From: Dehalogenimonas lykanthroporepellens BL-DC-9
Lineage (GTDB): Bacteria > Chloroflexota > Dehalococcoidia > Dehalococcoidales > Dehalococcoidaceae
Length of the DNA: 64,000 nt
Direction of reading: 5' to 3'
NCBI GenBank assembly: GCA_000143165.1
Contig: CP002084.1
Coordinates: forward strand, 1,116,001-1,180,000
How positions within the stretch are numbered: position 1 is the first letter of the stretch; each line of letters starts with the position of its first letter. The notes under the pieces are model-generated. The model made no database searches. It was not told where the DNA came from and worked only from the letters and a program-made list of their open reading frames with translations. Of the stretch, positions 13,673 through 51,514 are shown piece after piece. The position numbers and the translations under genes were made by a program.

Positions 13673-13704
13673 AATCAAACCTCTCCCAACATAATGTTAC
13701 GACA

Positions 13705-20320: not shown

Positions 20321-20349
20321 TTGCGTCATAGCTATTGCACGCCTATAAT
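20321..20349 (+). promoter_or_regulatory. Promoter of the methylase/nuclease operon
   Basis: TTGCGT (20321-20326) and TATAAT (20344-20349) are 17 bp apart. Transcription should begin near 20356, which rules out the far-upstream TTG at 20335 as the methylase start. Confidence 0.65.
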
Positions 20350-20394
20350 TGCCCTAATCAAAAGGACTGGTTTTTAAAAAGGGACTGGTTTCTG

Positions 20395-37210: not shown

Positions 37211-37287
<77 letters not shown>

Positions 37288-37421
37288 AGGGGACAATACC
37301 TAGAACTCCTTCACGAGGGAGAGTTTTTTCAATAACCTTCCCATGGCTCTAGTTTAGAATTTTCCTACCGATATATGCTACCATTTCAACAATGACCAAC
37401 GCCGTAATGTAGGTGGCATAC

Positions 37422-39209
37422 ATGCCTCTGACACAACAAGAGAAAAGATGTGTTGCACTCGCCTGTCGTTACCTCCGAGAACACTATGGAGGTGACTGGT
37501 CCGTCCATGAGAACCTAGACGACCGCAAGCTTCAGGAGCCTACCCCAGAGGTAATTGCTGGCAATGGTACCAAGACGGCTGCTATTGAAGTCAAGCGACT
37601 CATAGACTCCGCATCTCAGGATTACATTGCATACCTTCGCAATAATGAAAGGTTCCTGGCACCATCATGCGGCGGTTCCTACTACCTCTGCCCAGCACTC
37701 GGCTTTCAACTACCAATGACTCGTTCCATGCGTAAGCTAGTAAGACAAGAGGTAACACGTGTCGCCCCAACCCTGAAACCGGGTCAGAAGGGCACCATCC
37801 GAATCCCACGAGAAGGACACATCTCCCTGATTGCCCCGTCTAGCCCGTCTCTCATAATGTGCCTTCATGGCAATCAGTACCCTGAACTAATGCGCCGTAT
37901 CGGAGAGCGAATAGCGGGGAAGTTCATGCTCGTTGACGAAGGTCTAGAGCATTCTTTCATTACACAGGAGTGCAAAGACGCCTTTGAAGAAGCAGTTGTC
38001 GCGGCTTGTAACAGAAGGTTAATGGGCAACAGTGATAAGTTCACCTGGTATGAGGAGTGGGAGCTTGTCAGGACTGACAAAGGCGGCGGCTCTAAAGGCA
38101 GTGTTTGGGTGGTAGCAACCACAGGCGCACATTCCATGCAAACATCAGTCGAACAGTGCGTTCATGCCGTCCTGGATAATGCCATGCGGAAGTTCAGACG
38201 AACGCCACGCTGGGCAGACGTTCAGGTTATCGTATTGGAGACTTCAGCAATGGCTCCATCAGACCTGGCGGCTGGTGCAGCAGAGACCTTCCACCCACAA
38301 GACAAAGAGCTTATCAACCACTTCCTGATTGTGGAAGGCGAGGACATAAATGAGGCTAACACCATAGTGGCCTCCCTGAAGCGAGAAGCTGAAGCTGAAC
38401 GCCAGCGCCAGGAGACTCATATCCTCCAATCGTCCGTGTCAGAGGCACGCGTGCAAGTATTCGAGGACGATTACTTGAAGAGTCGAAAAGAGATAGGTGC
38501 AGCGGAGAAAATATTCAGGTACTATGGTGCATTCCAGAACAAGGCTACCCCAAATCATTTGACAAGCTTTGGCTTTAACCAACTGGTCAACAAAGGCCCA
38601 TTTGTGGACGGCTCAAACTGGCTTGACCTTAGAGGGTGGGAATTCGCTGTTGCAGAAGAGCGCCACCTACTGAAGACATTGCATACCCGCCTGATAGATT
38701 CAGTTCGCCATACCCGTCAAGCTCTCTCAGATGCTGTCGCTCCACAGCCAGAGAGAATCCTTGACACAGCCAAGAAGATGGCTGCCTTATTAGGCAAACC
38801 AGAAGGGTGCCTGATAGTGATAGCCGCCCATTTGGATGTTGACACTGTGGTGTCCCTCGACAAGTTGCTCACTACGCCAGGATGGGAACTTGGCGACGAC
38901 CTTAGAACAAACTGGATTTTGGGCAAACATGAGGGTTGTCCGATTTTCCACCTGAATGAGCCAGGATTACATAGCCTCTACGCCATCGACGTGCCCAGGT
39001 TTGCTTCTCTTATTCAGTATGATCCAGTAGTTGATTTGAGGGTAACGGCAATAGATGAAGTTACTGCGAAACAGTTGTTGAAAAACAATCCTAACCTCAA
39101 ATCGGATGTGAGTACTCTCTTATCAATGGTGCACCTTATCCTATACCAGTCTTATGAGATACATATCAGTGACGAATGTGCAGTCTGGGCTGCCAATCTT
39201 TCGCCCTGA
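37422..39209 (+). CDS. Large protein of unknown function, possible N-terminal nuclease-like domain
   Basis: The 595-residue protein starts at ATG 37422 behind AGGTGG; a GTG three codons upstream is possible. I do not recognise the family. Near residues 40-60, PTPEVIAGNG followed by TAAIEVKRL resembles the E...ExK core of PD-(D/E)xK nucleases. The middle is mixed alpha/beta, with a helical stretch rich in Glu/Arg around residues 310-350. No membrane segment is seen. Moderate GC and position just after tRNA-Ala suggest acquired DNA, perhaps a defence function. It is convergent with the HNH gene. Confidence 0.7.
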   Translation: MPLTQQEKRCVALACRYLREHYGGDWSVHENLDDRKLQEPTPEVIAGNGTKTAAIEVKRLIDSASQDYIAYLRNNERFLAPSCGGSYYLCPALGFQLPMTRSMRKLVRQEVTRVAPTLKPGQKGTIRIPREGHISLIAPSSPSLIMCLHGNQYPELMRRIGERIAGKFMLVDEGLEHSFITQECKDAFEEAVVAACNRRLMGNSDKFTWYEEWELVRTDKGGGSKGSVWVVATTGAHSMQTSVEQCVHAVLDNAMRKFRRTPRWADVQVIVLETSAMAPSDLAAGAAETFHPQDKELINHFLIVEGEDINEANTIVASLKREAEAERQRQETHILQSSVSEARVQVFEDDYLKSRKEIGAAEKIFRYYGAFQNKATPNHLTSFGFNQLVNKGPFVDGSNWLDLRGWEFAVAEERHLLKTLHTRLIDSVRHTRQALSDAVAPQPERILDTAKKMAALLGKPEGCLIVIAAHLDVDTVVSLDKLLTTPGWELGDDLRTNWILGKHEGCPIFHLNEPGLHSLYAIDVPRFASLIQYDPVVDLRVTAIDEVTAKQLLKNNPNLKSDVSTLLSMVHLILYQSYEIHISDECAVWAANLSP

Positions 39210-39237: not shown

Positions 39238-39894
39238 TTATCGCCTCGTCAGATAGCGGGCAAGCTCCTCACTAATGACATAGCGTGAGACATTGTTGTA
39301 GGTGATTTCCCTAATGAGACCACGATTCTGGAGGATAAGCAGCTTGCTTTCGAGGTCAGGGTGGTCTTCGAAATAATAGACTAACACAGGATGTTCAGGA
39401 CGCCCATTGTACACCCAAGTCTTCTTCAGGATAACGAACTCGCGGCTCAAGTGGTTGGCAGCCAGGTCGTTCCTCATTTCGCTGAACATGTCCGGCATAA
39501 CACTTTCGAGCTCTGCGCACTTGTCAGTGGAATCTTCGCCAACACCTGAATGGCTCTCTAACTCATGGATTGCCGTCGTCTCTGCAAGCCTCTTCCAGAG
39601 CTGCAACACATCCACCGCATAACGGATTGGGTCATTGTCAACTAACTTGGCGCATGATTGACAGAGCCAGATTCCATTGCCAGTACCTTGCCTATCGTCG
39701 GAGGTCATGGCCGGATCGAAGCGAGGACCACCCTCCGAGGCGGCTGTGATGTGCGCCGCAACCCCGATGTTTACTGCCTTGGTGGTGTCTGTCTGTGGCC
39801 CACTAGTCACATGGCGGCATGCTGGGTTCGAGCAGCGATAGGCCACCCGTTTTGCTAGGAGTTCTTTGGTTGGCAAAGAAAAATCGTCTCTCAT
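39238..39894 (-). CDS. HNH-like zinc/nuclease domain protein
   Basis: The 218-residue protein has a treble-clef/HNH-like N-terminus: RCSNPACRHVTSGP, then NIGVAAHITAAS, then NGIWLCQSCAKLVDND. The His after AA and the two CxxC pairs are those expected for an HNH nuclease. The C-terminal half (residues about 130-218) is unrecognised but ends in a possible winged-helix-like stretch (LESKLLILQNRGLIREI). It is convergent with the preceding gene, and an AT-rich gap follows. Probably a phage-defence or mobile-element nuclease. Confidence 0.75.
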   Translation of the reverse strand: MRDDFSLPTKELLAKRVAYRCSNPACRHVTSGPQTDTTKAVNIGVAAHITAASEGGPRFDPAMTSDDRQGTGNGIWLCQSCAKLVDNDPIRYAVDVLQLWKRLAETTAIHELESHSGVGEDSTDKCAELESVMPDMFSEMRNDLAANHLSREFVILKKTWVYNGRPEHPVLVYYFEDHPDLESKLLILQNRGLIREITYNNVSRYVISEELARYLTRR

Positions 39895-40226
39895 CTACTA
39901 AAATCCAAATGTTTAGTGTTTCTATCTAAAGATATAAACAGTTTACATCTGACGGTAAATGCTTTTCAATTAACAACTGTTCAACCGGGTTATTTTAGGG
40001 TGTATTAGCTACCTATTCATTCGAGATTTTTCTTATTACCTAACGCCAAGCTCCCCCAAATTCACCGGTCCAACACCAACGATAATGCCGCTCCGTTGGG
40101 CAGACAACCTTATTTCTTTTCGTGCAGTAAATATTTGATAACGCAAATATATTGTTGACACTTTCGCATTTACTAAGCTAAAATGTCTGATAAGCATTTA
40201 CTTACTCCAAGAGGTGAGGTGCCTCA
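39895..40226. promoter_or_regulatory. Regulatory region of the XRE-NurA-HerA-GHKL-radicalSAM operon
   Basis: A promoter is clear: TTGACA at 40155-40160 and TAAAAT at 40179-40184, 18 bp apart. Two copies of GCATTTACT overlap it (40166-40174 in the spacer, 40194-40202 at the transcription start). An inverted GTAAATGC lies at 39955-39962. This layout fits repression by the first gene product. The rest of the gap is AT-rich with nothing recognisable. Confidence 0.65.
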
Positions 40227-40457
40227 ATGCCTATCAGCTACAACAAGCTATGGAAACTGTTAATCGATAAAGGAATGAACAAACAAGACCTGAAGCGATT
40301 ATCGGGTATCAGTACAACATCCATCGCGAAATTAGGTAAAGGCGAGAACATAACGACGGATGTATTACTGAAGATTTGTAAGGCTTTGAATTGCGATGTG
40401 GCGGATATTATGGAAGTCACTCCTGGCAATGGGAAGACTAAAAGGAGGACAAAGTAA
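40227..40457 (+). CDS. Small XRE-family (Cro/CI-type) regulator
   Basis: The 76-residue protein is a single helix-turn-helix domain (NKQDLKRLSGISTTSIAKLGKGENITTDVLLKICKALNCD) with a short basic tail. It resembles YozG-type small regulators. Ribosome site AGAGGTGAGG precedes it. It is the first gene of a five-gene rightward operon and lies 1 bp from the next start, so it is likely the autoregulator acting at the GCATTTACT boxes. Confidence 0.9.
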   Translation: MPISYNKLWKLLIDKGMNKQDLKRLSGISTTSIAKLGKGENITTDVLLKICKALNCDVADIMEVTPGNGKTKRRTK

Positions 40458-40458
40458 C

Positions 40459-41646
40459 ATGGCTAATTCCGCTACCAAGCTAAAGCACGAAAAGGTCATG
40501 AGCATTCTTGCCGAGGTCACCGGCGGGAAGAGCTACAAGGCACATAAATATGCCCTTGACCATACAGACCGTCCAGCAGTCGACTACGGCGATAGTGAGA
40601 TCATCTGGAAAAGGAGAGCTGAAACTACGCTGCATAAGACATATGTCGATTTGTCAGGATTGAGCAAGAAGCCCGCCTTTCGTGACGGCCAGATTTTGAG
40701 CTACTTTTTAGATGGCTCACGCAGGGTTTTTAAGGTGGATGACATCGCATATGCACAATCCGGCGGCCGAAGCGTTATTTATCCAGTGATTGCTGGTCAG
40801 ATAGGTGTTGGATGCTGCCGACGTGTCGATAAAAAAGTTATTCCGATCAAGTTCGAGAGAGAGTTTGTTTTATCTATGCCGGATGTAGCTGACGCCGATG
40901 GGAAACCCGGCTTTTGGCCAGCCACAGCTAAGAAACTTAGCGAGTGTAACGAATTGAAGAGACTAGGGATAGAATTTTCGACTATTCTGCCGTATAAGAC
41001 ATCCAAAAATACAGATAAAAAATTCGAGGATCGGGCAACGGCCTGTGTCCAGGATAGAATGATTGAATGTGAGAAAAAACTCGTTGCCGAGCTTGTGCGT
41101 CTAGATAATCTGAACCAGGATAATTACTTGGTCAAGGATGGGTCTTTGGAGTATCGGCCAAGTAAGGAAGATAAAATAGATAGGAAGAAATACCAGACTT
41201 TTAAGAATAACTATAGCTGGGTTATTGGTGCCTCAAAGAATTTCAATCCGGAGGTCTGTGAGGATATAAACGGCAAACCCAATCCTGGCTTCATTGCCGA
41301 TTTACCTCTATACCACCGTACTCCCGTTGCAGAGTATGAAAACCAAATGCTCGGCGATATCAAGTTTGCAGTGTGGTACATACGACTCAGAGATAAGACA
41401 CAGACTCGGACTCCGTTCGACGGTATCCTCAAGGTAGAGAAAATTCTCGTGACGGAGGAAGAAAACGAGTTTGGTATTGATAGTCAGCTCGTTGATACAT
41501 TGAGTGCTTATCTTATGAATGAGAGAAACCCCGTTTGTTATGGGTCGGACCTGAGGTGGGCGAATCACATCTATCCCATCTACCTTACAGAGTCTTTTGT
41601 AAAATCACGTTATCTGAATGCTGAAAGCTTCCTGCACCTATTTTAA
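40459..41646 (+). CDS. NurA-like nuclease
   Basis: The 395-residue protein starts at ATG 40459 behind AGGAGGAC. Features recall NurA, the 5'-3' nuclease that works with HerA: SYFLDGSRRV with the motif-I Asp at residue 85, a central WVIGASK segment matching the NurA VxGxxK motif, FAVWYIRL before the end, and a C-terminal WANHIYPIYLTESFVKSRYL resembling the YPxPLxxAH tail. Overall divergence is high. The HerA-like ATPase is encoded 12 bp downstream, as expected for a NurA-HerA machine. Catalytic competence is not proven. Confidence 0.65.
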   Translation: MANSATKLKHEKVMSILAEVTGGKSYKAHKYALDHTDRPAVDYGDSEIIWKRRAETTLHKTYVDLSGLSKKPAFRDGQILSYFLDGSRRVFKVDDIAYAQSGGRSVIYPVIAGQIGVGCCRRVDKKVIPIKFEREFVLSMPDVADADGKPGFWPATAKKLSECNELKRLGIEFSTILPYKTSKNTDKKFEDRATACVQDRMIECEKKLVAELVRLDNLNQDNYLVKDGSLEYRPSKEDKIDRKKYQTFKNNYSWVIGASKNFNPEVCEDINGKPNPGFIADLPLYHRTPVAEYENQMLGDIKFAVWYIRLRDKTQTRTPFDGILKVEKILVTEEENEFGIDSQLVDTLSAYLMNERNPVCYGSDLRWANHIYPIYLTESFVKSRYLNAESFLHLF

Positions 41647-41658
41647 GGAGGATCGCGA

Positions 41659-43344
41659 ATGAGCAAATTAATTGGACGGGTCTTGGCGACCGAGAAAAGC
41701 CCCACAACAATGGACGAATTTAACTTCTGGACTAACTCTGATCTGAAGCTTCATGCATTTGATATTGTTAAGGTTGAACATATAGAAAAATCTTACACTT
41801 TTGGAGTGATTGAGAACATCTCACATATCACTGATGCCCAGAGCTTTCTAACGAACTTCATCTCTAGTGATTTTGGTGATGTTAACATCGATGAACCTAC
41901 ACTTCGCGTCGGTATGAATTATGCCCAGGCCAAGGTATCCTTCAATAGTGGGAGCCTATATACACCAGTGCATAACAATGCAAAAGTATATCTTGCTACA
42001 CCCGAGGAGATTACCATGGCACTGGGGCTGGACAAGATTGAAAACCCGTTGGTGTGCGGTTCTCTCAAGATGTATGAAGGAACCTCGGATGAAGTTACAC
42101 TACCTGTATACTTAAATTCGAAGTTCATCCTGGGGCCTGAAGGCGCGCATCTGAATATCTCGGGAATTTCAGGGCTTGCAGCAAAGACATCTTATGCGAT
42201 GTTTCTGATGAAGGCCATTCAGGATAGGTATTTTAATACTGGTGAAACAGACGAAAGCGTGGCTTTTGTTATTTTCAACGTAAAGGGCAAGGACTTGATG
42301 GCTATCGATAGACCGAACGACTTCTCGGCCGACAGCCCCGGGGAAAGAGACCGAACCCTTGCAGAATATAAGTCTTTGGGTTTATCCACCGAACCGTTTA
42401 ACAAGGTGAAGTACTATATCCCTTACGCAAGTAATACCTCGGCTAAGCAAAGCACCTATTTGACAAAGGACGAAATTGATAACTATCTAAAGGCCGCTCA
42501 GTTAAAAAAATTCAAATACATTTACTCTGACGACAAAGAGAACATCGAGATGATGTTTGCAGATATTGATGATCCAGCTCAAACCATGGAGTCAATTATC
42601 AGTAAAATTATTGACAATGATGATAAGGATTTTGGGGGTCTGTCCACGTGGAAGGACTTTATGGACAAAGTGACAGAAAATGCACAGAAAGGTTCAACTG
42701 GTGCTAAGGGTGATATTTCCGTCTTGAGCTGGAGGAAGTTTAAACGGGTGGTGCGTAAGGCAATTCAAGATGATATGTTTGCTAACGCGGTAAATCCTTC
42801 TAAAGCTGAGTGTCGCCTCGCTGATGATCTGAAGCATATTCATAAGAATGAAGTATATGTTGTCGATATAGCTAAGCTCCCAGAGGACAAACAGGCATTT
42901 GTCTTTGGCGATGTAGTAAGGACTATCTATAACCTGAAACTTGGAGAGTACGATGGTGAATCTGAGGTAAAACCACCGTCCAGGATCATCGTCTTCATCG
43001 ACGAACTAAATAAATACGCATCCAAAGAGGTTCCCAAGACGTCTCCGATTCTGCGGGAAATTCTTGATGTGACCGAACGCGGAAGATCACTTGGGGTTAT
43101 ATTGTTCGCCGCAGAACAATTCCGGTCGTCAATCCATGACCGCGTAACAGGTAACTGCGCAACACACGCTTACGGAAGGACCAATTCCATCGAAACGTCG
43201 ATGAGAGACTATGGCAGCTTGCCCAATACATATAAGAGCATGCTGATGCGCTTGGAACAAGGTGACTATCTCGTACAAAATCCGGTCTTTAGATCGTTGT
43301 TAAAGATCAACTTTCCAAAACCTATCTACAAACAGTTTAAATAA
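41659..43344 (+). CDS. HerA-like FtsK/DUF87 ATPase
   Basis: The 561-residue protein has an N-terminal HAS-barrel-like region (LIGRVLATEKSPTTMDEFNFW) and a P-loop region LNISGISGLAAKTSY near residues 165-179, in which the Gly before Lys is Ala. The HerA strand VIFNVKGKDLMAID, Walker B RIIVFIDELNKYAS near residue 445, and the C-terminal LEQGDYLVQNPVFRSLLKINFP follow. It should form a hexameric DNA translocase with the NurA-like protein. An AAGGAGG site precedes the ATG. The altered Walker A may lower or alter ATP hydrolysis. Confidence 0.8.
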   Translation: MSKLIGRVLATEKSPTTMDEFNFWTNSDLKLHAFDIVKVEHIEKSYTFGVIENISHITDAQSFLTNFISSDFGDVNIDEPTLRVGMNYAQAKVSFNSGSLYTPVHNNAKVYLATPEEITMALGLDKIENPLVCGSLKMYEGTSDEVTLPVYLNSKFILGPEGAHLNISGISGLAAKTSYAMFLMKAIQDRYFNTGETDESVAFVIFNVKGKDLMAIDRPNDFSADSPGERDRTLAEYKSLGLSTEPFNKVKYYIPYASNTSAKQSTYLTKDEIDNYLKAAQLKKFKYIYSDDKENIEMMFADIDDPAQTMESIISKIIDNDDKDFGGLSTWKDFMDKVTENAQKGSTGAKGDISVLSWRKFKRVVRKAIQDDMFANAVNPSKAECRLADDLKHIHKNEVYVVDIAKLPEDKQAFVFGDVVRTIYNLKLGEYDGESEVKPPSRIIVFIDELNKYASKEVPKTSPILREILDVTERGRSLGVILFAAEQFRSSIHDRVTGNCATHAYGRTNSIETSMRDYGSLPNTYKSMLMRLEQGDYLVQNPVFRSLLKINFPKPIYKQFK

Positions 43345-43356
43345 CGAGGAAATACA

Positions 43357-44913
43357 ATGGATAAGACAGATTACGTCTTTGGCGCGAACATTCTGGAAAA
43401 CCTTACAACGGGAATGTATCAAGATTCGAAGGTGATTTACCGCGAATATATTCAAAACTCCTGTGACCAGATAGATAAAGCAGTCAAAGACGGAATCCTG
43501 AAACCCGGCGAAGGCACCATAAAGATATGGCTGGACCATGACCAACGAACCATCGTTATCGAAGATAATGCTACGGGTATTCCTGCCACATCATTCCAAC
43601 GAACCCTTGGAAATATCGCCGATTCTGACAAGAAGATCGGTGAAGACAAAGGTTTTCGAGGGATCGGTAGATTGTGTGGCCTGGCGTATTGCAAACAGCT
43701 GGTCTTCGAATCGTGTTGCCTGGGCGAGGAAACTGTTTCAATCATGTTATGTGATGCCAAGAAGATGCGAGGTCTCATTGAAGAGAATCAGCGAGGTAAG
43801 AAGCATACGGCTAATGAAGTGCTGCATGCTATCAACCGCTTTGAACAGAAGAAGACAAACAATTCTGACTCTCATTTCTTTCGAGTTAAACTTATTGATA
43901 TTAACCCTGAGAATACCGACCTGCTCGATTTTCAGAAGGTTAAGGATTATCTCTCGTTTGTTGCACCCGTACCTTACCAGAATAGCTTCTATTATCGAAG
44001 TGAAGTGTACAAGCATGCCCAGTACTTGGGCGTTAGGCTCGACGAATACAATATCACTCTCGATGGAGAGACTGTTTTCAAGAAGTTTTCGACTATCCTT
44101 AAAGACTCAGCCGGAAACAAATACGATGACATATTTGCTGTCCATTTTAAGGACTTTTATGACGCAGATAGAGAACTATTTGCTTGGATGTGGGTTGGTT
44201 TATCAAAATTCCAGAAGGCTATCCCGAAGATTAACCAGATGCGTGGCTTGAGGTTACGTAAAGAAAATATCCAGATTGGTGGAGAAGACTCGCTCCAAAA
44301 ACTTTTCAAAGAGGACCGCGGAAACAGCTATTTTGTTGGCGAGGTTTTTGCTGTGAACAAGGACTTGATTCCAAATTCGCAGCGTGACTATTTCAATGAG
44401 AACATGGCGCGGGCAGAGTTCGAGCGCGAGTTGCGAAAGTACTTCAACGAGGAATTACATAAGATTTATTACGACGGGTCAGCCATCAATAGCGCATATA
44501 AGAAAATCGATACATACGAGAAAAAGGAAGCTGAATTCAAAGAAAAAGAGAATTCGGGCAGCTTTGTTAATAAAGGCCATCGTGACTCAGAGTTGAACGT
44601 CGTTCTTCGGTCAAAGAAGGACGCACAAGATGCCCAGGTACGAATTGAAAAGTTGAAAGATAAAGCTAATGACCTAATGCAAAAGGTCATAGACCGGATA
44701 GAGGACGAACGACCTAAGACGGTTATAAAAGCGACCAATCCACCTGACACGAACCCACCTAAAGACAAATTAGGGCGTCGAACTGACAGGCTTTCACAGT
44801 ATAGCCGGAGCGATCGCAAGCTCATATCAAAAATATTCGACATTATTTTGAGAGCAGCAGATCGCGAGACTGCTGAACGAATAATCAGCAGCATTGAGGA
44901 AGGACTCCAATGA
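43357..44913 (+). CDS. MORC/Hsp90-like GHKL ATPase
   Basis: The 518-residue protein has an N-terminal GHKL fold. The N-box is YREYIQNSCDQID (Glu30, Asn34, Asp38), motif D is IVIEDNATGIP (Asp70, Gly74), and motif GFRGIGR is at residues 99-105. The middle is a transducer-like region with conserved basic residues (MRGLRLRKENIQIG). The tail has a coiled coil (about 380-450) and a Pro/Thr linker. MORC-type bacterial GHKL ATPases are linked to DNA clamping and restriction systems. It follows the HerA-like gene by 12 bp and overlaps the next start by 4 bp. Confidence 0.85.
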   Translation: MDKTDYVFGANILENLTTGMYQDSKVIYREYIQNSCDQIDKAVKDGILKPGEGTIKIWLDHDQRTIVIEDNATGIPATSFQRTLGNIADSDKKIGEDKGFRGIGRLCGLAYCKQLVFESCCLGEETVSIMLCDAKKMRGLIEENQRGKKHTANEVLHAINRFEQKKTNNSDSHFFRVKLIDINPENTDLLDFQKVKDYLSFVAPVPYQNSFYYRSEVYKHAQYLGVRLDEYNITLDGETVFKKFSTILKDSAGNKYDDIFAVHFKDFYDADRELFAWMWVGLSKFQKAIPKINQMRGLRLRKENIQIGGEDSLQKLFKEDRGNSYFVGEVFAVNKDLIPNSQRDYFNENMARAEFERELRKYFNEELHKIYYDGSAINSAYKKIDTYEKKEAEFKEKENSGSFVNKGHRDSELNVVLRSKKDAQDAQVRIEKLKDKANDLMQKVIDRIEDERPKTVIKATNPPDTNPPKDKLGRRTDRLSQYSRSDRKLISKIFDIILRAADRETAERIISSIEEGLQ

Positions 44914-46715
44914 ATCGGAAGATTCTCTTGATAGAACCGAACTATAGAAACAAATACCCTCCGATGGGTCTCATGAAGTTGGCCACTTATTACCGCACAC
45001 GAGGCGATGATGTTCGTTTTTTCAAAGGCGACTTAAAAGTTTTTGCAGCCCAACTGTTATGTGAAGAGTTTTTGGCAGAAGTGAACGACCCCACACTTGG
45101 TAAACAGGTCCCTAAACTTATTGAATACATAAAGACAGGTAAATACGCTCCGCTCGATGCGATACCAAATTTCAGGAACAGCGAACAGGACTCGCTACTG
45201 AAAGAATACCGCCTTCGTTTTCGAGATAGCAGGTTTCCGCAGTTTGATGTCATCGGAGTCACTACACTATTCACATTTTATTGGCGTGAAACAATCGATA
45301 CGATAAACTATGCGAAGAAGTTCTGCTCGGACAAAGGTAGAATTATTCTAGGCGGGATTGCCGCAAGCATTCTTCATAAGCAAGTACGTGAAGAAACCGG
45401 GATTGAACCTATTTGCGGCCTATTAAACAAACCAGGCATGCTGGATGCCGATAACGAAGACATCATCGATGAACTCCCATTGGATTACTCCATCTTAGAA
45501 GAGATTACTTATCAGTACCCGGCATCTAATTCTTATTTGGCCTACATGACACATGGGTGCCCACGCAAATGCGCTTTTTGCGCTGTCCCTCAGTTGGAGC
45601 CAAAGTTTAAGGATTATGTGGGTATGAAGGAGCAAATCCGGCAGGCTACTGAACGGTTCGGACCACAAAAAGACCTACTACTGTTAGACAATAATGTCTT
45701 TGCTTCGAAACACTTTAATAAAATCATAGATGAAATTAAAGAGTGCGGTTTCGAACGTGGTGCTATGTATATCCCAGAGAGTGAATATGCTATCGCGATG
45801 AAAAACCTGCGTGCCGGTTACAATGTGCGAGCATATACAAGAAAACTAATCGAGCTATATGATCGGATTTCTGGCAAACTACCGGAGACGGAACAGGCGG
45901 ACTTCTACTTGAAGCGAGAAGAGCGCAATCTGCTATATTCGGAAGTGGCAACTCAAGAAGCAATGATCGAGTTTGATGATATTGCGCGTCCCCTCTACCA
46001 AAAGTATTTCAAACGGCTAAAGCGCATGCGTATTATTGATTTCAATCAGGGCGTCGACGCTCGTCTCGTAACCGACAAGAAAATGGAGAAATTGGCCGAG
46101 ATCAACATCCGTCCACTGCGGTTTGCCTTCGACCACTACTCTATGAAAGACACCTACGAGAAGGCGATTCGTACTGCTGCAAAATATAACATTACGGAAT
46201 TGTCCAACTACTTACTCTATAATTTCGAGGACGAGCCGGATGATTTGTACCATAGGATGAGAATCAATGTTGCCTTGTGCGATGAACTTGGTGTGAATAT
46301 CTACTCATTCCCGATGAAGTATCATCCCATCGACGACCCGGAATACTTTGATAATCGAGAATATATTGGAGAACATTGGAACCGCAAGTTTATACGATCT
46401 ATCCAGGCGGTCCTTAATGCCACAAAAGGAAAGATTGGCCGTGGGAAATCCTTCTTCGAAGAGGCCTTTGGTAAAGATATTGATGAGTTTCACAAAATAC
46501 TATGGATGCCGGAGGCATTTATTATCCATCGTTTCAAATATAAAGACAATTTAACTGCCGAGTGGTGGGGGAAATATAATCGTCTTGATGACGTACAAAT
46601 AATAAGACTAAAAGAAATCGTAGCAAAAAATGTTTTTGATGAGACTACAATCACGGGGGATGCGGCTGTGGATGAGGTTCTGAAGTATTATCACGTGAGA
46701 CGCGACCACAAATAA
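44910..46715 (+). CDS. Radical-SAM protein with B12-binding-like N-terminus
   Basis: The 601-residue protein begins with a cobalamin-binding-like Rossmann region (ILLIEPNYRNKYPPMGLMKLATYYRTRGDDV, then DVIGVTTLFTFYW and IILGGIAAS). The radical-SAM motif is CPRKCAFC near residues 217-224. The barrel follows with LLLDNNVFAS and INIRPLRFAFDHY. A long insertion separates barrel strands around residues 300-370. It overlaps the GHKL gene by 4 bp (ATGA), so it is part of the same operon. A radical enzyme alongside HerA/NurA and GHKL proteins is unexpected. The substrate is unknown. Confidence 0.88.
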   Translation: MNRKILLIEPNYRNKYPPMGLMKLATYYRTRGDDVRFFKGDLKVFAAQLLCEEFLAEVNDPTLGKQVPKLIEYIKTGKYAPLDAIPNFRNSEQDSLLKEYRLRFRDSRFPQFDVIGVTTLFTFYWRETIDTINYAKKFCSDKGRIILGGIAASILHKQVREETGIEPICGLLNKPGMLDADNEDIIDELPLDYSILEEITYQYPASNSYLAYMTHGCPRKCAFCAVPQLEPKFKDYVGMKEQIRQATERFGPQKDLLLLDNNVFASKHFNKIIDEIKECGFERGAMYIPESEYAIAMKNLRAGYNVRAYTRKLIELYDRISGKLPETEQADFYLKREERNLLYSEVATQEAMIEFDDIARPLYQKYFKRLKRMRIIDFNQGVDARLVTDKKMEKLAEINIRPLRFAFDHYSMKDTYEKAIRTAAKYNITELSNYLLYNFEDEPDDLYHRMRINVALCDELGVNIYSFPMKYHPIDDPEYFDNREYIGEHWNRKFIRSIQAVLNATKGKIGRGKSFFEEAFGKDIDEFHKILWMPEAFIIHRFKYKDNLTAEWWGKYNRLDDVQIIRLKEIVAKNVFDETTITGDAAVDEVLKYYHVRRDHK

Positions 46716-46772
46716 ACGTTGGTTTTAAATCCAAGTAATAACCATTCAGAATAATATCATTTTCAACAAACA

Positions 46773-46806
46773 AGAAGGGGGCCGTGAATATTCACGGCCC
46801 CCTTCT
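46773..46806. terminator. Perfect palindromic bidirectional terminator
   Basis: A 34-bp perfect palindrome has arms of 17 bp (starting AGAAGGGGGCC). It lies between the convergent rightward operon and the leftward mobile block and marks the right end of the five-gene operon. Confidence 0.85.
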
Positions 46807-46827: not shown

Positions 46828-47313
46828 TTAGAACTCAAACAACGCTGGCTGTTCCGATTCTCTTTTGGCTACCTCCTCTTCTTTCTGATGACGTCTTTCT
46901 GCCCGTTCTTGTTCCTGTCTGGCTGTGGTTCGCCGTTGATATAGCCATTCTTTCAGCCGGATCAGGTCGGACATCTGCTGGTCTGTTAATGAATTAACCC
47001 TGATATCCTTTGGCATCTCACTCTTGCTCCATCGGGTATAGGTTTTACTAGCGACATACAGATAAATCTGGCTCCAGTCGCTATCCATCGGCAAAGTAAG
47101 CGAAGCCGTATTGAGATAGGCACAGGCTTCAGAATCCGTGCCAGTAGGTTGTTCTCCTTTAGTTACCTTCATGTTTTCAGTTAACCGTTCCAGAGTAATG
47201 GCATTTTTTAACCATTCTGGGAGACTATCCCCCCAACCTCCTGGATAGACAATGATAGGATCGGTTAGCGTACCTACTAAGTCATCTATCATCGTATTGA
47301 TATTTTTGGACAA
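46828..47313 (-). CDS. Hypothetical protein of the mobile block
   Basis: The 161-residue protein starts at TTG 47313, placed 5 nt after GGAGGG. The N-terminal half is mixed, with PIIVYPGGWGDSLPEW. The C-terminal 45 residues form a charged helix (RQEQERAERRHQKEEEVAKRE) ending PALFEF. The middle, YLYVASKTYTRWSK, is conserved-looking. I do not recognise it. It is the last gene of the leftward plasmid/phage-like block and lies before the shared terminator. Confidence 0.65.
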   Translation of the reverse strand: MSKNINTMIDDLVGTLTDPIIVYPGGWGDSLPEWLKNAITLERLTENMKVTKGEQPTGTDSEACAYLNTASLTLPMDSDWSQIYLYVASKTYTRWSKSEMPKDIRVNSLTDQQMSDLIRLKEWLYQRRTTARQEQERAERRHQKEEEVAKRESEQPALFEF

Positions 47314-47352
47314 AGTTACCCTCCTTAATTTAGGATTTTTGTGGTTTGAGGT

Positions 47353-47670
47353 CTAGTATTCGTCGGGGAATAGAATAGTGGTTGAGCTCCGATCGGCCTC
47401 GGTGATTATCCAGATGTTAGCCACTCCATTCTTAGGAAAGCGGTCATCGTTGTAAGCCGATAACAAACGTGTATCTTGTTTCAGCGCCTGGTCGTTAGCC
47501 TGCTTGTCCTCTTCATCCACATCACCCCAGTCACCCTTAACGTGACGATTAAGGGACTTCTGAATGAATTGGGCAAAGTCGGGGTTTTCACACGCAAGGT
47601 CGTAGACTCCTCTGGTGGCGACAATCTGGCCAGTATTGAAAGCAGCGTTGATTACGAATAATGTATTCAT
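47353..47670 (-). CDS. Plasmid/ICE-type conserved hypothetical protein
   Basis: The 105-residue protein has the segments VATRGVYDLACENPDFAQFIQKSL, then HVKGDWGDVDEEDKQAND, and RLLSAYNDD. I recall this pattern (GDWGDxxxEDxxxN) from small proteins of conjugative and plasmid elements. Role unknown. The ATG follows AAAAGGAG. A two-codon mini-ORF (ATG CCC TAA) ends 13 nt upstream. Confidence 0.7.
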   Translation of the reverse strand: MNTLFVINAAFNTGQIVATRGVYDLACENPDFAQFIQKSLNRHVKGDWGDVDEEDKQANDQALKQDTRLLSAYNDDRFPKNGVANIWIITEADRSSTTILFPDEY

Positions 47671-47683
47671 TTCATTTCTCCTT

Positions 47684-47692
47684 TTAGGGCAT
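47684..47692 (-). promoter_or_regulatory. Two-codon mini-ORF upstream of the 105-residue gene
   Basis: GAAGGGGTAACT precedes ATG CCC TAA, a complete ribosome site plus start and immediate stop. The stop is 13 nt before the true start, with a separate AAGGAG between. Similar mini-ORFs precede two neighbouring genes. Confidence 0.45.
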
Positions 47693-47724
47693 AGTTACCC
47701 CTTCATAAATTAGGAATAAGCCTT

Positions 47725-48207
47725 TTAGTCCTTGAACTTGGTTATATGCAGGCAGGCGTAGTGTGACCTGAAGTTGTCTATTGGGCTTTGCCAGAAACCG
47801 TTGCGGAAGTCTAGCAGGTAGTGCCAGTAACCCTGGTATTCCTGTTCCCGCACGGCCACGAGGTAGTCGGTGAATATCCTGACGGCTGCTGACTTGCTTC
47901 CCCAGAGTACGATGACACTGGGAATATAGGTGTGGTCGCTCTTGAGTCTCATGGGATGCCATTCCAGTTGAAGTCTGGGGAGTTTCAGATTATCGAGCCA
48001 GAAGTGGCGTCCGCCGGCGTCGTAAGAGCCGATGTAGATGTCCTTACCTTCCAGCTCTTCCAATATCTCCATCAGGCGCTTTATGGCTTCCCGCCGTTTC
48101 TTACGAAGCGGTATCTGGACGGTTTTTCGTCCCAGTTTCACTGTAGTGGTCGGCTCAGGTTCGGCAAGTTTGACTCCATCAAACAAGTCCATCTGACCTG
48201 TTGCCAT
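47725..48207 (-). CDS. Hypothetical protein of the mobile block
   Basis: The 160-residue protein starts at ATG 48207 after AAAGGAG. The N-terminus is polar (MATGQMDLFDGVKLAEPE) and a basic helix RKKRREAIKRLMEILEEL follows. The rest is rich in aromatic residues (GRHFWLDNLKLPRLQLEWHP and YQGYWHYLLDFRNGFWQS). No known motif. Encoded between two other small genes with the same leader organisation. Confidence 0.6.
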   Translation of the reverse strand: MATGQMDLFDGVKLAEPEPTTTVKLGRKTVQIPLRKKRREAIKRLMEILEELEGKDIYIGSYDAGGRHFWLDNLKLPRLQLEWHPMRLKSDHTYIPSVIVLWGSKSAAVRIFTDYLVAVREQEYQGYWHYLLDFRNGFWQSPIDNFRSHYACLHITKFKD

Positions 48208-48227
48208 GTTTTTTTACTCCTTTCTAT

Positions 48228-48242
48228 TCAGATTTCGGGCAT
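48228..48242 (-). promoter_or_regulatory. Four-codon mini-ORF upstream of the 160-residue gene
   Basis: GAAGGGGTTACC precedes ATG CCC GAA ATC TGA. The stop is 20 nt before the gene start, with an AAAGGAG in between. Confidence 0.45.
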
Positions 48243-48277
48243 GGTAACCCCTTCAATTGCCGGTATCGCTGGCTTTG

Positions 48278-48613
48278 TTAACTCACTAAACTGAGCTGTT
48301 TGCCGCTGTTTGCCTTCTGCCGCTCTGCCTCTACCATTCCATTGGGTATAGACTCACGGACAGAGCTAATCGCGGAACGAACATACCCCGGATGAGGTTG
48401 CTGGTTCCAAGACAATACCCCACCAGTAACCCGCTCGATTTCGCCAATGAGACGGGACAGGTGCTGGTCAATGTAGCCTGGCAGGTTGGGGATTTTCCTC
48501 GCTTCCACAGCTACCAGCTTTGCCTGTTCCAATGGCTCAATGGCTTGATTGACGTATTCCTCGACCATATCCATTGCCTCATTGACCATCAGCGCATTCC
48601 ACTTGATAGGCAT
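48278..48613 (-). CDS. Hypothetical helical protein of the mobile block
   Basis: The 111-residue, mostly helical protein starts at ATG 48613 after AAAGGAGGT. The N-terminal half has VNEAMDMVEEYVNQAIEPLEQAKLVAVEAR and a conserved-looking IPNLPGYIDQHLSRLIGEIERV. No recognised domain. It is preceded by a four-codon mini-ORF at 48632-48646. Confidence 0.6.
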   Translation of the reverse strand: MPIKWNALMVNEAMDMVEEYVNQAIEPLEQAKLVAVEARKIPNLPGYIDQHLSRLIGEIERVTGGVLSWNQQPHPGYVRSAISSVRESIPNGMVEAERQKANSGKQLSLVS

Positions 48614-48631
48614 AGTTTTACCTCCTTTATT

Positions 48632-48646
48632 TCAGTTATTAGGCAT
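48632..48646 (-). promoter_or_regulatory. Four-codon mini-ORF upstream of the 111-residue gene
   Basis: AGGGGTAACT precedes ATG CCT AAT AAC TGA. The stop lies 18 nt before the gene start. The sequence resembles the gene's own start (GGTAAAACTATGCCTAT), suggesting a duplicated initiation region. Confidence 0.45.
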
Positions 48647-48680
48647 AGTTACCCCTGCAAGAATGGGTAAGTGGGGTGGT

Positions 48681-48869
48681 CTAGCTCTTGAGAGCCATAT
48701 TGATGGCTTCCTTGACGACATCAGACCAGCACTCCATTCCCCATTCCACACCCTTCTTCACCTGGGCGAGGATGTCATCGGTTATCGCTTCTTCAGGGAT
48801 ACCCATCTCCCTGGCACAATCAATGACATCTACCTTGCTGAGGACAAAGATAGTGTCCGTATCCGCCAT
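48681..48869 (-). CDS. Small hypothetical protein of the mobile block
   Basis: The 62-residue protein starts at ATG 48869 behind AAAGGAGG; a longer in-frame extension to 49097 lacks a ribosome site. It is acidic and helical (VSKVDVIDCAREMGIPEEAITDDILAQVKKGVEWG-like composition). I do not recognise it. It is the first gene after the beta-clamp terminator, so it begins a separate transcript; I see no strong promoter in the gap. Confidence 0.6.
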   Translation of the reverse strand: MADTDTIFVLSKVDVIDCAREMGIPEEAITDDILAQVKKGVEWGMECWSDVVKEAINMALKS

Positions 48870-49079
48870 AGTCGGCTTCCTCCTTTCTAAATGAATTACG
48901 AATAAATATCTGGGAGTACCTACTCTCTTTGGTTGTGGCTCGTACTGTGCAACTGTCCCTGGGGACTTCCAAAAAGTACGCAACCGCTGGTGCTGTCCCT
49001 GCCATCGAGGGCTTACGTCTATCGAGGTCTGCCTCTGCCATCGGGTATCGGTGCTCCCTGCCCTTTTAGCCATAAAAAA

Positions 49080-49158
49080 AAGGGTATCCGTTCCCACGCA
49101 TTGGGGAAACGAATACCCCTAAAAAAGCAAAAAAGCGGGGTCTCCCCCGCTTTTTTGC
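49080..49158 (-). terminator. Tandem hairpins after the beta-clamp gene
   Basis: A perfect 14-bp stem (49127-49140 with 49145-49158, loop TCTC) is followed on the minus strand by TTTTTT. A second hairpin formed by GGGTATCCGTTCCC and GGGAAACGAATACCC lies just beyond. Together they make a strong stop for the clamp transcript. Confidence 0.85.
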
Positions 49159-49195
49159 GTTGGCTGTTTTCTGAGTTCAAGCGTTCAGTTCAGGC

Positions 49196-50356
49196 TTATG
49201 CTACGGCGACTGGTTCTTTTGCCTTGCTTCGCTTCCGCTTCGGCTTATCGGCTTTAGTGATTGCTTCGGCTTCGGCTACCGCTTGGGCTTTCTCGGCTTC
49301 GCTTACCATCTCGGCTTCTGGCTCGGTTGGTTCGGTATCCTCGGCGGGTTCGGTTTCTGCCTTGACTGGCTCGGCGGTCTGTGTCTCACCTTTCGGCTTC
49401 TGGCTTTCACCAGCAAACATCGGCATTACCACAAGCTCATAGTCGGGAGAGGTAAAGAGCATTGGCGATTTACTATCTACCAGCTTAAGCTCTACCATCC
49501 CGCCACAAGCTCTTAAGGCGTCAGCAAGGTAACTGCCATCCAGTCTTATCCTGCCTTCGCCCTGTGTATCGGCGGGTATCTCTGCCATTCCCTTATCATC
49601 GGGACTGGACATTGTGAGCTTGCCGTTGCCGATTGTGAGGTCTATCGGGTATGCCTTGCTATCGGACAGGACTTTGAGTGAGCTTACCGCCCTGATTGCC
49701 TCGTTAGTATCAAAGCTAACAAAGGTATTGAAGTAGGCGGGTATGAGCTTCTCGTATTCGGGAAAGTTCCCGTCAGCCCCCCGCCATTTATAGCGGATTA
49801 GCTCCGTGTCCAGAACAAGGCTCATTCCGTCAAGGCTTTCCCCGCTTTTCTCAAAGCCCACCCTTACCCTGTATGCCCTTCGCAGAGCACTGATTACACC
49901 CCTTAGCTCATCCCGATTTATCAGGACTTGCCCTTCATCACCGTCAAAATCCAGCTTCACCATCGCAAGTCTGTAACCATCGGCGCTTACCATCGTGAGC
50001 TTGCCGTCTGCCACCTTGAAGAGGACACACTGTAAAACAGGTCTGTTATCCTCTTTAGCGGTGAACGGCACGACCCTTGATAGTGCTTCCGATAGCTCCA
50101 GTGCTCCGAGGTTAGGCTTGACGGAATTGGAAGGACTTACTCTGACATCGCAGAGTGTTAGAGGTGTTTTATCACCTACCCAAGCCATATCGTCAAGGTA
50201 ACTGGTATTTGCTCCGCAAACCACCTTCAGTCTTTTATCGGCAACCCGCAACCCGCTGGCATCGCCGTTAGACGAGGGAACGACTTTTACAACGTTACTC
50301 CCGCCTAATGACTTAATGTAGGTAAGAAAGCCTTTACGCCCTATCGTGAAATCCAT
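49196..50356 (-). CDS. DNA polymerase III beta-clamp homologue on a mobile block
   Basis: The 386-residue protein has the three-domain sliding-clamp layout: MDFTIGRKGFLTYIKSL start, RPVLQCVLFKVADGKLTMVSADGYRLA (clamp signature, residues about 125-150), and domain III ending DYELVVMPM. After it comes an acidic, Ala/Glu/Pro-rich tail of about 55 residues with a basic end (KPKRKRSKAKEP), not found in chromosomal DnaN. The ATG at 50356 follows AAAGGG and matches clamp N-termini; a TTG at 50455 is an unlikely alternative. As a second clamp it probably serves replication of an integrated element. Confidence 0.85.
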   Translation of the reverse strand: MDFTIGRKGFLTYIKSLGGSNVVKVVPSSNGDASGLRVADKRLKVVCGANTSYLDDMAWVGDKTPLTLCDVRVSPSNSVKPNLGALELSEALSRVVPFTAKEDNRPVLQCVLFKVADGKLTMVSADGYRLAMVKLDFDGDEGQVLINRDELRGVISALRRAYRVRVGFEKSGESLDGMSLVLDTELIRYKWRGADGNFPEYEKLIPAYFNTFVSFDTNEAIRAVSSLKVLSDSKAYPIDLTIGNGKLTMSSPDDKGMAEIPADTQGEGRIRLDGSYLADALRACGGMVELKLVDSKSPMLFTSPDYELVVMPMFAGESQKPKGETQTAEPVKAETEPAEDTEPTEPEAEMVSEAEKAQAVAEAEAITKADKPKRKRSKAKEPVAVA

Positions 50357-50590
50357 CAGCACTACCCTTTCGGCTAGTGCCCTTGATAGAGCGTTTACCA
50401 ATATCGCCTTGTGAGCACAAAAGCCCTCACCTGAACGCTTGCCCTCAATATTCAATTGTTCTATTTGAACACCCCCTATTGACTATCCGACAGTGGGCAA
50501 GGCTATCGGCTTCGTCTAGTAGTAAGCTACCGATAACCCGCAATTCGCTGGCATTATCGGTGCTCCCACTATATATATTGGTAAGGGGTG

Positions 50591-51205
50591 TCAGTTTGCG
50601 ACATACTGTAATAATCTTTTTTGTTCGTGTCGTCTGAACCGCTCCAGATACTTCTGGTCTTTTTTATCAAGAGGCGTGCCCTCAAGCCTCTTGTGAGCTA
50701 TCTCAACTAACCTATTCGGGAAACTAAGAAGGAAAGTTCGGGCGTCAATCCAAGCTCCAACGTCAATCGCCTTATCATCAGCGATGGTATTCCCGAACTC
50801 GGTTACGTTGCCATCGCCGTCTGTTATCGGCTTTGACAGGTATTCAGTCTTGATAGCCTTTGGACATTCGCCGTAGAGATAACCCGCCTTGCATTTTGCT
50901 CTTTGCCTCTGGCTACAGCTTCCGCAATCAAGCCCATTGGTGAGCTTGTATTGCTTACGCCAGTAAAGAGCGACCACACAGCTTGCGATACGGCACATCA
51001 TCGCTTCACTGAAGGACTTATTGCCGTTTCTGGCTCTGGTCAATGCCAGTTCCAGTATGATATTATGTCGGATGTCTCCCCTATCCTGTGCGGGCACTTT
51101 GTGTTCAAACCTTTGGGCGGTGCGAAACCATTGTGCCCATTCGCCGTTAAGTCGGTCATAGGATAGGGGGTTCTCGTCTTGTGGACAGCATAAAGTAGTT
51201 ACCAC
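50591..51205 (-). CDS. Hypothetical protein with cysteine cluster and basic tail
   Basis: The 204-residue protein starts at GTG 51205 behind AAAGGGGG; TTG at 51232 is possible. Features: RGDIRHNIILELALTRARNG, then SFSEAMMCRIASCVVALYWRK, resembling sigma-factor-like helices from phage and plasmid genes. A Cys cluster CGSCSQRQRAKCKAGYLYGEC follows, then a basic C-terminus (KKDQKYLERFRRHEQKRLL). I cannot place it firmly. It precedes the clamp gene by 234 bp on the same strand. Confidence 0.6.
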   Translation of the reverse strand: MVTTLCCPQDENPLSYDRLNGEWAQWFRTAQRFEHKVPAQDRGDIRHNIILELALTRARNGNKSFSEAMMCRIASCVVALYWRKQYKLTNGLDCGSCSQRQRAKCKAGYLYGECPKAIKTEYLSKPITDGDGNVTEFGNTIADDKAIDVGAWIDARTFLLSFPNRLVEIAHKRLEGTPLDKKDQKYLERFRRHEQKRLLQYVAN

Positions 51206-51514
51206 GCTTAAACCCCCTTTTTGTTCGGGCAAGCGTTCAGGTCAGGGTCTTTGTCCTCTGTATTCTGTTGTTAATGTGCTTCGTGTTTTGTATCTGTTTA
51301 GCTTCATTTTCCAACAAAAATACATAAGGTAAAATTTCAAGAACTAGCTATATAATCGTCCCTCTAGGAGTAGGTTAGAAGACATGAAAAATAACTTATT
51401 GCCTTGATAGGAAAAACCCTAATTATCGCTAAACCAAACCGGTAATTGGTACAGCAAAACCACAACAATTTGATAGCCTTTCTTCTAAGTTCTATACTTA
51501 GGTGGGAAACTGTG
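51206..51514. promoter_or_regulatory. Divergent region between the mobile block and the PhoB/PhoR-like pair
   Basis: A TATAAT at 51351-51356 points rightward, but its -35 is poor. A seven-codon ORF (MKNNLLP, ATG at about 51381) follows a GGAG-like site and could be a leader peptide. No tRNA or attachment repeat is visible at this island edge. Confidence 0.35.

What the first reader, a model, noticed from the sequence alone, without database searches (positions are those of the whole stretch)
39895..46806. Five-gene operon: XRE regulator, NurA-like nuclease, HerA-like ATPase, MORC-type GHKL ATPase and radical-SAM enzyme
The genes are tightly packed (gaps of 1, 12 and 12 bp and a 4-bp overlap), share one promoter with repeated GCATTTACT boxes, and end at a perfect palindromic terminator. 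HerA-NurA pairs resect DNA ends or act in phage defence, and GHKL/MORC proteins occur in restriction systems. I know of no described defence or repair system that adds a B12-like radical-SAM protein to these. The set sits in an acquired island beside other nuclease genes. That it works as one system is inference.
Basis: partly seen in the sequence, partly recalled or inferred. Interest (0 to 1): 0.86.

Follow-up and report, generated by a model that had tools for sequence, protein, structure and literature searches.

The report
Nuclease-pump operon with radical enzyme
A mobile four-gene set, found in the same order in very different anaerobic bacteria and at least one archaeon, couples a DNA-pumping nuclease (HerA-NurA) to an Hsp90/MORC-like ATPase and a vitamin-B12-type radical enzyme; it looks like an undescribed anti-virus system in which the radical enzyme may chemically mark the host's own DNA.

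Summary
XRE, NurA, HerA, GHKL ATPase and radical-SAM genes are packed at 40227-46715 with the stated gaps. AlphaFold/Foldseek gives the 395-aa protein a NurA fold (D. radiodurans NurA, E 3e-12). The 561-aa protein is a full-length homologue of D. radiodurans HerA. The radical-SAM protein has the fold of cobalamin-dependent radical-SAM methylases (MgmA, TsrM, AprD4). The decisive test passed: in 57 of 63 complete loci NurA-HerA-GHKL-rSAM occur together in this order, across Bacillota, Chlorobiota, Planctomycetota, Synergistota, Spirochaetota and Methanomicrobiales. Eight of eight HerA hits of at least 46% identity, found without reference to the radical-SAM gene, also carry all four. XRE is optional. 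GHKL-rSAM also pairs with DndB/DGQHR, ParB-like or cyclase-like proteins, and phage relatives of the rSAM sit beside DNA methyltransferases more often than distant genes do. I infer a modification-restriction-like defence system: rSAM marks DNA, HerA-NurA destroys unmarked DNA, GHKL licenses. Only the anatomy and co-inheritance are shown; the chemistry and the defence phenotype are untested. No paper in the held library and no PADLOC model describes the set. Corrections: the 'terminator' has its T-tract on the minus strand, and XRE is not core.

The parts
40155..40184 (+). sigma-70-like promoter TTGACA-18-TAAAAT
   Evidence: 11 of 12 consensus matches; a consensus match only, function inferred
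40166..40174 (+). GCATTTACT box 1, in the promoter spacer; putative XRE operator
   Evidence: only two copies in the 64 kb window
40194..40202 (+). GCATTTACT box 2, downstream of the -10 hexamer
40227..40457 (+). XRE/Cro-type regulator, 76 aa (HTH_26); accessory, not in most relatives
   Evidence: Pfam PF13443 E 1e-20; found in about 10 loci by similarity
40459..41646 (+). NurA-family nuclease, 395 aa; D85, E205, D227, H370 invariant
   Evidence: AF2 model pLDDT 87.7; Foldseek 7f6d_G DrNurA E 2.6e-12, 2ygk SsNurA 4e-8; VIA Z 20.9 over 295 residues; residues
41659..43344 (+). HerA-family hexameric DNA translocase, 561 aa; variant Walker A G169-ISGLAAKTS178, Walker B D448-E449
   Evidence: phmmer to DrHerA 7f6d_B E 2e-40, profile E 1e-115; residues
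43357..44913 (+). GHKL ATPase (Hsp90/MORC/TopoVIB-type nucleotide site; E30, N34, D70, G74, S90, K92, G102, G104 invariant), 518 aa
   Evidence: HATPase_c_3 E 1.6e-7; profile to HtpG 2ior E 5e-11; residues
44910..46715 (+). radical-SAM protein with N-terminal cobalamin-binding-like Rossmann domain; cluster cysteines C217, C221, C224; family motif DFNQGVDAR 377-385
   Evidence: AF2 pLDDT 93.1; MgmA 9ccb E 3e-9, TsrM 1e-8, AprD4 2e-7; VIA Z 15.2 / 14.3; phrog_9298 E 1.7e-41
46773..46806 (-). 34-bp perfect palindrome; terminator-like on the minus strand, for the converging gene 46828-47313
37211..37286 (+). tRNA-Ala(cgc), left border of the acquired region
   Evidence: synteny with G098 ends at 37286

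Best explanation
The four genes form a horizontally moving anti-invader system that works like a modification-restriction pair. Proposed steps: (1) the B12-type radical-SAM enzyme, with the GHKL ATPase as an ATP-driven clamp or loader, puts a chemical mark on the cell's own DNA; (2) HerA forms a hexamer on a NurA dimer, pumps incoming double-stranded DNA that lacks the mark and shreds both strands; (3) the GHKL protein couples or licenses the two halves; (4) in this genome an XRE repressor, through two GCATTTACT boxes at the promoter, keeps expression low. Shown here: the folds, the intact catalytic residues, the conserved order and co-inheritance of the four genes, sporadic spread and mobility. 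Inferred: that DNA is the substrate of the radical enzyme, that the mark controls HerA-NurA, and that the outcome is defence.
For: Order NurA-HerA-GHKL-rSAM in 57 of 63 complete loci, median gaps 12/12/0 bp. Reciprocal HerA search: 8 of 8 hits of at least 46% identity have all four. Pairwise distances of the four proteins correlate, r 0.85-0.94 (host phylogeny not removed). NurA and HerA folds or homology with intact residues. rSAM has a cobalamin-rSAM methylase fold. NurA also resembles TdpB of TdpAB (8wet, Z 15.1), by my own knowledge the HerA/NurA-like restriction half of a DNA phosphorothioation system. In alphaproteobacterial plasmids GHKL-rSAM is paired with a DGQHR/DndB protein and PIN_8 nuclease-GHKL; L143 adds a ParB-like gene. 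Phage relatives of the rSAM: DNA methyltransferases in 18 of 130 near ORFs, plus Mom 2 and PAPS reductase 5, against 3 listed in 130 far ORFs (Fisher p 0.001-0.017). Sporadic, with recombinases, relaxases, AbiE, pAgo and mad3 among flanking genes. T. kodakarensis HerA-NurA degrades both strands and its authors suggest antiviral defence (PMC12977600).
Against: No phenotype and no measured DNA modification. The closest structural matches of the rSAM act on proteins (MgmA), amino acids (TsrM), sugars (AprD4) and tRNA (MiaB), not DNA. DNA methyltransferases are common in phages, and the near/far contrast is modest. Deinococcus HerA-NurA is linked to recombination. Flanking genes are a mix of defence, mobile and housekeeping, and no background control for defence enrichment was run. 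The 57 of 63 figure comes from the 80 closest of 408 rSAM relatives; more distant ones use other partners.
Confidence: 0.45

Rival explanations
1. Defence system without DNA marking: HerA-NurA is the effector, GHKL the sensor or switch, and the radical-SAM enzyme matures one of the proteins or makes a modified nucleotide or signal, as viperin does.
For: MgmA (protein glutamine C-methylase) and TsrM are among the best structural matches. Viperins are antiviral radical-SAM enzymes (PMC12926258). In some loci GHKL-rSAM stands next to a cyclase-like protein (L095; L063 Guanylate_cyc E 9e-4).
Against: DndB/DGQHR and ParB-like partners, and the methyltransferase neighbourhood of the phage relatives, point to DNA. 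Cyclase-like variants are few.
Confidence: 0.27
2. DNA repair: a NurA-HerA end-processing machine whose GHKL and rSAM partners replace Mre11-Rad50 in anaerobes.
For: More distant HerA relatives sit in NurA-HerA-SbcD-SbcC clusters (L006-L008, L192, L196). D. radiodurans HerA-NurA affects recombination (discussed in PMC12977600).
Against: Sporadic: one genome of those searched in the genus, 6 of 291 in the class of G156 and 2 of 197 in the archaeal phylum (counting strong hits only, seeds included). Mobile context. T. kodakarensis HerA-NurA does not make 3' overhangs (PMC12977600).
Confidence: 0.15
3. Mobile-element function: the genes help the host element compete, replicate or transfer, for example by destroying rival elements.
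For: Recombinases, relaxases and an integrase next to the set, conjugative plasmids for the DGQHR variant, copies in predicted viral contigs.
Against: No fixed integrase, relaxase or replication gene accompanies the set; the carriers differ.
Confidence: 0.1

Closest known systems
Bacterial/archaeal HerA-NurA (D. radiodurans, S. solfataricus, T. kodakarensis)
   Same: NurA fold and catalytic D/E/D/H; HerA full-length homology and gene order nurA-herA
   Different: There the pair is alone or with Mre11-Rad50; here it is nearly always with a GHKL ATPase and a radical-SAM enzyme
TdpABC DNA phosphorothioation system (own knowledge; structures 8wet, 8wfd)
   Same: A HerA/NurA-like restriction pair coupled to a DNA-modification enzyme; TdpB matches the NurA model at Z 15.1
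   Different: The modification enzyme is not a radical-SAM protein and there is no GHKL ATPase (own knowledge); HerA here is closer to DrHerA
DndABCDE/DndFGH and 'HerA/FtsK capture systems' (PMC10853773)
   Same: A HerA/FtsK motor in a modification-linked counter-invader system; DndB relatives in the alphaproteobacterial variant
   Different: That paper's text has no NurA, GHKL or Hsp90 and no radical-SAM superfamily member of this kind
HerA defence systems (Sir2-HerA, HerA-DUF4297) and MADS mad8
   Same: A HerA-type hexamer with a partner enzyme; P0002 hits mad8 at E 1e-8
   Different: The partner is NurA rather than Sir2 or DUF4297; no MADS gene set in the operon
MORC/Hsp90/TopoVIB GHKL ATPases
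   Same: Bergerat ATP site
   Different: No MORC-specific domain was tested; the C-terminal half has no named family match
Cobalamin-dependent radical-SAM methylases (MgmA, TsrM, OxsB) and phage phrog_9298
   Same: Rossmann plus radical-SAM barrel fold; phrog_9298 matches at E 1.7e-41 with the DFNQG motif
   Different: Substrate unknown; about 75-residue insertion (295-370) absent from phage and alphaproteobacterial relatives; B12 binding not shown

Membership tests
NurA nuclease | NurA (RNase H-like) fold | tested here: met
   Foldseek to DrNurA E 2.6e-12, SsNurA 4e-8; VIA Z 20.9 and 15.4
NurA nuclease | conserved acidic metal-binding residues and His | tested here: met
   D85, E205, D227, H370 in 54 of 54; assignment by motif, not superposed residue by residue
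HerA translocase | sequence homology over full length, Walker A/B | tested here: met
   7f6d_B E 2e-40; profile 3-565 of 566, E 1e-115; K176, D448, E449 invariant; Walker A is a variant (GLAAKT)
HerA-NurA complex | physical complex, dsDNA nuclease | not testable with these tools
   adjacent genes only
GHKL ATPase | Bergerat motifs | tested here: met
   Pfam; invariant E30, N34, D70, G74, G102, G104
MORC proper | S5 domain and CW/coiled-coil architecture | not tested
   no model of this protein was made; best profile hits are Hsp90/HtpG
Radical SAM superfamily | CxxxCxxC cluster motif and barrel | tested here: met
   C217, C221, C224 in 55 of 55; fold
Cobalamin-dependent radical SAM | cobalamin bound by N-terminal domain | tested here: inconclusive
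   fold present, but binding cannot be seen here
Modification-restriction system | a modification enzyme acting on DNA | not testable with these tools
   indirect context only
TdpABC | TdpC-type phosphorothioation enzyme | tested here: inconclusive
   no TdpC-specific model was searched; the operon's genes are all assigned to other folds
Known PADLOC defence system | curated model hits for the operon's proteins | tested here: not met
   only mad8 (1e-8) and a weak HerA hit for P0002; none for NurA, GHKL or rSAM

The most novel reading that the evidence does not exclude
A B12-type radical-SAM enzyme puts a new chemical mark on DNA (for example C-methylation at an unactivated carbon), and a HerA-NurA shredder with a GHKL licensing ATPase enforces it: a modification-restriction class built on radical chemistry and spread among anaerobes, with GHKL-rSAM as a module that also pairs with DndB, ParB-like and PIN partners.
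Probability: 0.35. Interest if true: 0.95.

Novelty: new variant of a known kind. Interest (0 to 1): 0.8.

Why it matters
If the radical enzyme modifies DNA, it would be a bacterial epigenetic mark made by radical chemistry, with a shredder to enforce it, and one would expect new modified nucleosides in many gut, rumen and sediment anaerobes. If not, it is still a widely shared, strictly ordered four-enzyme set that curated defence models miss and that gives HerA-NurA, whose role is disputed, a concrete antiviral context to test. Either way the question can be tested with one operon.

Tried and rejected
Five-gene unit including XRE: rejected, since XRE is found in only about ten loci. Palindrome as the operon's terminator: the T-tract is on the other strand. 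GCATTTACT boxes as a conserved operator: not found upstream of nine XRE-bearing relatives, including the 74%-identical XRE of L092. The set as a phage or plasmid gene cluster with fixed companions: no other conserved neighbour. tRNA 3'-end direct repeat as right attachment site: none in the window. P0001 in plasmids by tblastn: no match. P0003 as a single-sequence viral query: none. Rfam was not searched, as no RNA was in question. Solved-structure profile search for rSAM by sequence: nothing at E 0.1, so only the fold search informed it. PADLOC tally of flanks gives families, not per-protein counts, so no enrichment was computed. The nearest open-library paper on HerA/FtsK systems (PMC10853773) does not describe the set. 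Papers holding NurA+HerA+radical SAM: one, on DHH/DHHA1 proteins of D. radiodurans by its title and abstract (not read). TdpABC papers were not found in the held library.
Full report
OBSERVATION. A promoter-like site TTGACA-18-TAAAAT lies at 40155-40184. The box GCATTTACT occurs only twice in 64 kb, at 40166 and 40194, one inside the promoter spacer, which fits autoregulation by the XRE protein. The boxes are not seen upstream of nine XRE-bearing relatives, so they are at best local. The 34-bp palindrome at 46773-46806 is perfect, but its T-rich tail is on the minus strand, so it better ends the converging gene.

ISLAND. Synteny with the closest same-genus genome (G098, about 78% identical) runs to the last base of tRNA-Ala (37286) and stops there; in G082 a recombinase gene follows the same tRNA. 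GC falls from 58% in the left flank to 43% in the operon. No other searched genome of the genus has the rSAM or HerA gene. The right border was not found.

WHAT THE PROTEINS ARE. The 395-aa protein has no Pfam, PADLOC or NCBIfam hit, but its AlphaFold model (pLDDT 87.7) matches D. radiodurans NurA (Foldseek E 2.6e-12), T. maritima TM1739 and S. solfataricus NurA (VIA Z 20.9, 19.0, 15.4). It also matches TdpB of the TdpAB complex (Z 15.1). D85, E205, D227 and H370 are identical in 54 of 54 relatives. The 561-aa protein is homologous to D. radiodurans HerA along its length (phmmer E 2e-40; profile E 1e-115), with Walker residues invariant. The 518-aa protein has a complete GHKL nucleotide site. 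The 601-aa protein folds (pLDDT 93.1) as a Rossmann domain plus radical-SAM barrel; the best solved matches are MgmA, TsrM, AprD4 and MiaB, and the three cluster cysteines are invariant. Whether cobalamin is bound is not shown.

CO-OCCURRENCE. A scan of GTDB genomes with an alignment of the radical-SAM protein found 408 relatives, of which the best 80 became loci. Of 63 with enough upstream sequence, 57 hold NurA, HerA and GHKL in the same order and strand, with median gaps of 12, 12 and 0 bp. By record titles they come from Bacillota, Chlorobiota, Planctomycetota, Synergistota, Chloroflexota, Cloacimonadota, Spirochaetota, a betaproteobacterium and a methanogenic archaeon, mostly anaerobes (lifestyle from own knowledge). 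The archaeal set is 67-84% identical to this one, which implies lateral transfer. The reverse test started from HerA alone in sampled genomes: eight of eight non-seed hits of at least 46% identity (G208, G416, G239, G327, G396, G613, G922, G785) carry NurA, GHKL and rSAM. One Chloroflexota hit at 39% (G072) has NurA-HerA and a DNA methyltransferase but no rSAM; hits near 31% sit with SbcD-SbcC or with NurA only. Pairwise distances of the four proteins correlate at r 0.85-0.94; this does not remove host phylogeny. No other gene is conserved around the set.

MODULARITY. The extended forms are informative. In L190 and L191 the order is NurA-HerA-GHKL1-AAA_15-unknown-GHKL2-rSAM; in L143 it is NurA-HerA-GHKL1-ParB-like-rSAM-GHKL2 ('ParB-like' by reading, no Pfam match). 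In alphaproteobacterial plasmids GHKL-rSAM follows a DGQHR/DndB protein and often lies beside PIN_8-GHKL. In L095 and L088 it goes with a cyclase-like protein. So there is an rSAM-GHKL module and an exchangeable effector module that often has its own GHKL protein.

WHY DNA MARKING. DGQHR/DndB proteins are known from DNA-modification systems (NCBIfam names; PMC10853773). The rSAM protein belongs to phage family phrog_9298 (E 1.7e-41). Among 130 ORFs within 1 kb of phage members there are 18 DNA-methyltransferase matches (N6_N4 8, C5 7, D12 3), 2 Mom and 5 PAPS-reductase; among 130 ORFs more than 2.5 kb away, 3 C5 methyltransferases are listed (Fisher p 0.001 to 0.017, depending on unlisted singletons). 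Counts are family matches, not curated genes. The structural kinship of NurA to TdpB (own knowledge: the restriction half of a phosphorothioation system) gives a precedent for HerA-NurA guarded by a DNA mark. T. kodakarensis HerA-NurA cleaves both strands and was suggested to act in defence (PMC12977600).

MECHANISM. I therefore favour: rSAM with GHKL marks host DNA; HerA-NurA pumps and degrades unmarked DNA. Steps shown: gene set, folds, intact active sites, co-inheritance, mobility. Steps inferred: substrate, mark, licensing, phenotype. Rivals are defence through protein or nucleotide modification, DNA repair, and mobile-element competition.

NOVELTY. PADLOC gives only a mad8 resemblance and a weak HerA hit. 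No paper in the open library was found to hold the combination as a system (nearest text read). Subscription papers, preprints and recent DefenseFinder models were not searchable, so prior description cannot be excluded.

Noticed in passing
window 37413-39209: 598-aa protein right after tRNA-Ala with no Pfam match; weak N-terminal likeness to Hjc Holliday-junction resolvase (E 0.012).
   Followed up: no
window 39238-39894 (minus): HNH-type protein resembling the N-terminal domain of SAVED-HNH/CBASS effectors and PADLOC candidate PDC-M68A (E 1.5e-22), divergent to the operon.
   Followed up: no
window 20335-22730: EcoRI-type adenine methyltransferase directly followed by a GmrSD_N (DUF262)-HNH protein: a second possible restriction system.
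   Followed up: partly
window 46828-51232 (minus): Cluster of small genes with a divergent DNA polymerase III beta-clamp homologue (49196-50455), phage- or element-like.
   Followed up: no
window 54145-55416 and 58501-59772: Two almost identical 423-aa IS256-like transposase genes about 3 kb apart.
   Followed up: no
window 12284-13678 and 16437-17813: Two TAT-signal iron-sulphur proteins resembling reductive dehalogenases, which suggests a Dehalococcoidia host (own knowledge).
   Followed up: no
L027 and L043: Radical-SAM relative standing alone, downstream of a ClpB-like gene, in two Synergistales genomes; like an orphan modification enzyme.
   Followed up: partly
L095:6726-10626, L088:8914-13164, L063:10912-13151: Cyclase-like protein next to a GHKL ATPase, with rSAM or just downstream of the four-gene set.
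   Followed up: partly
L112, L198, L199, L201, L202: Abundant phage family phrog_9298 (472 relatives in viral contigs) near methyltransferases, PAPS reductase, Mom, ParB and Thoeris inhibitors Tad2/Tad3: a candidate phage DNA-modification or anti-defence enzyme.
   Followed up: partly
L193:4532-8617: NurA-HerA followed by a DNA N6/N4 methyltransferase in Chloroflexota: another possible HerA-NurA modification-restriction pair.
   Followed up: no
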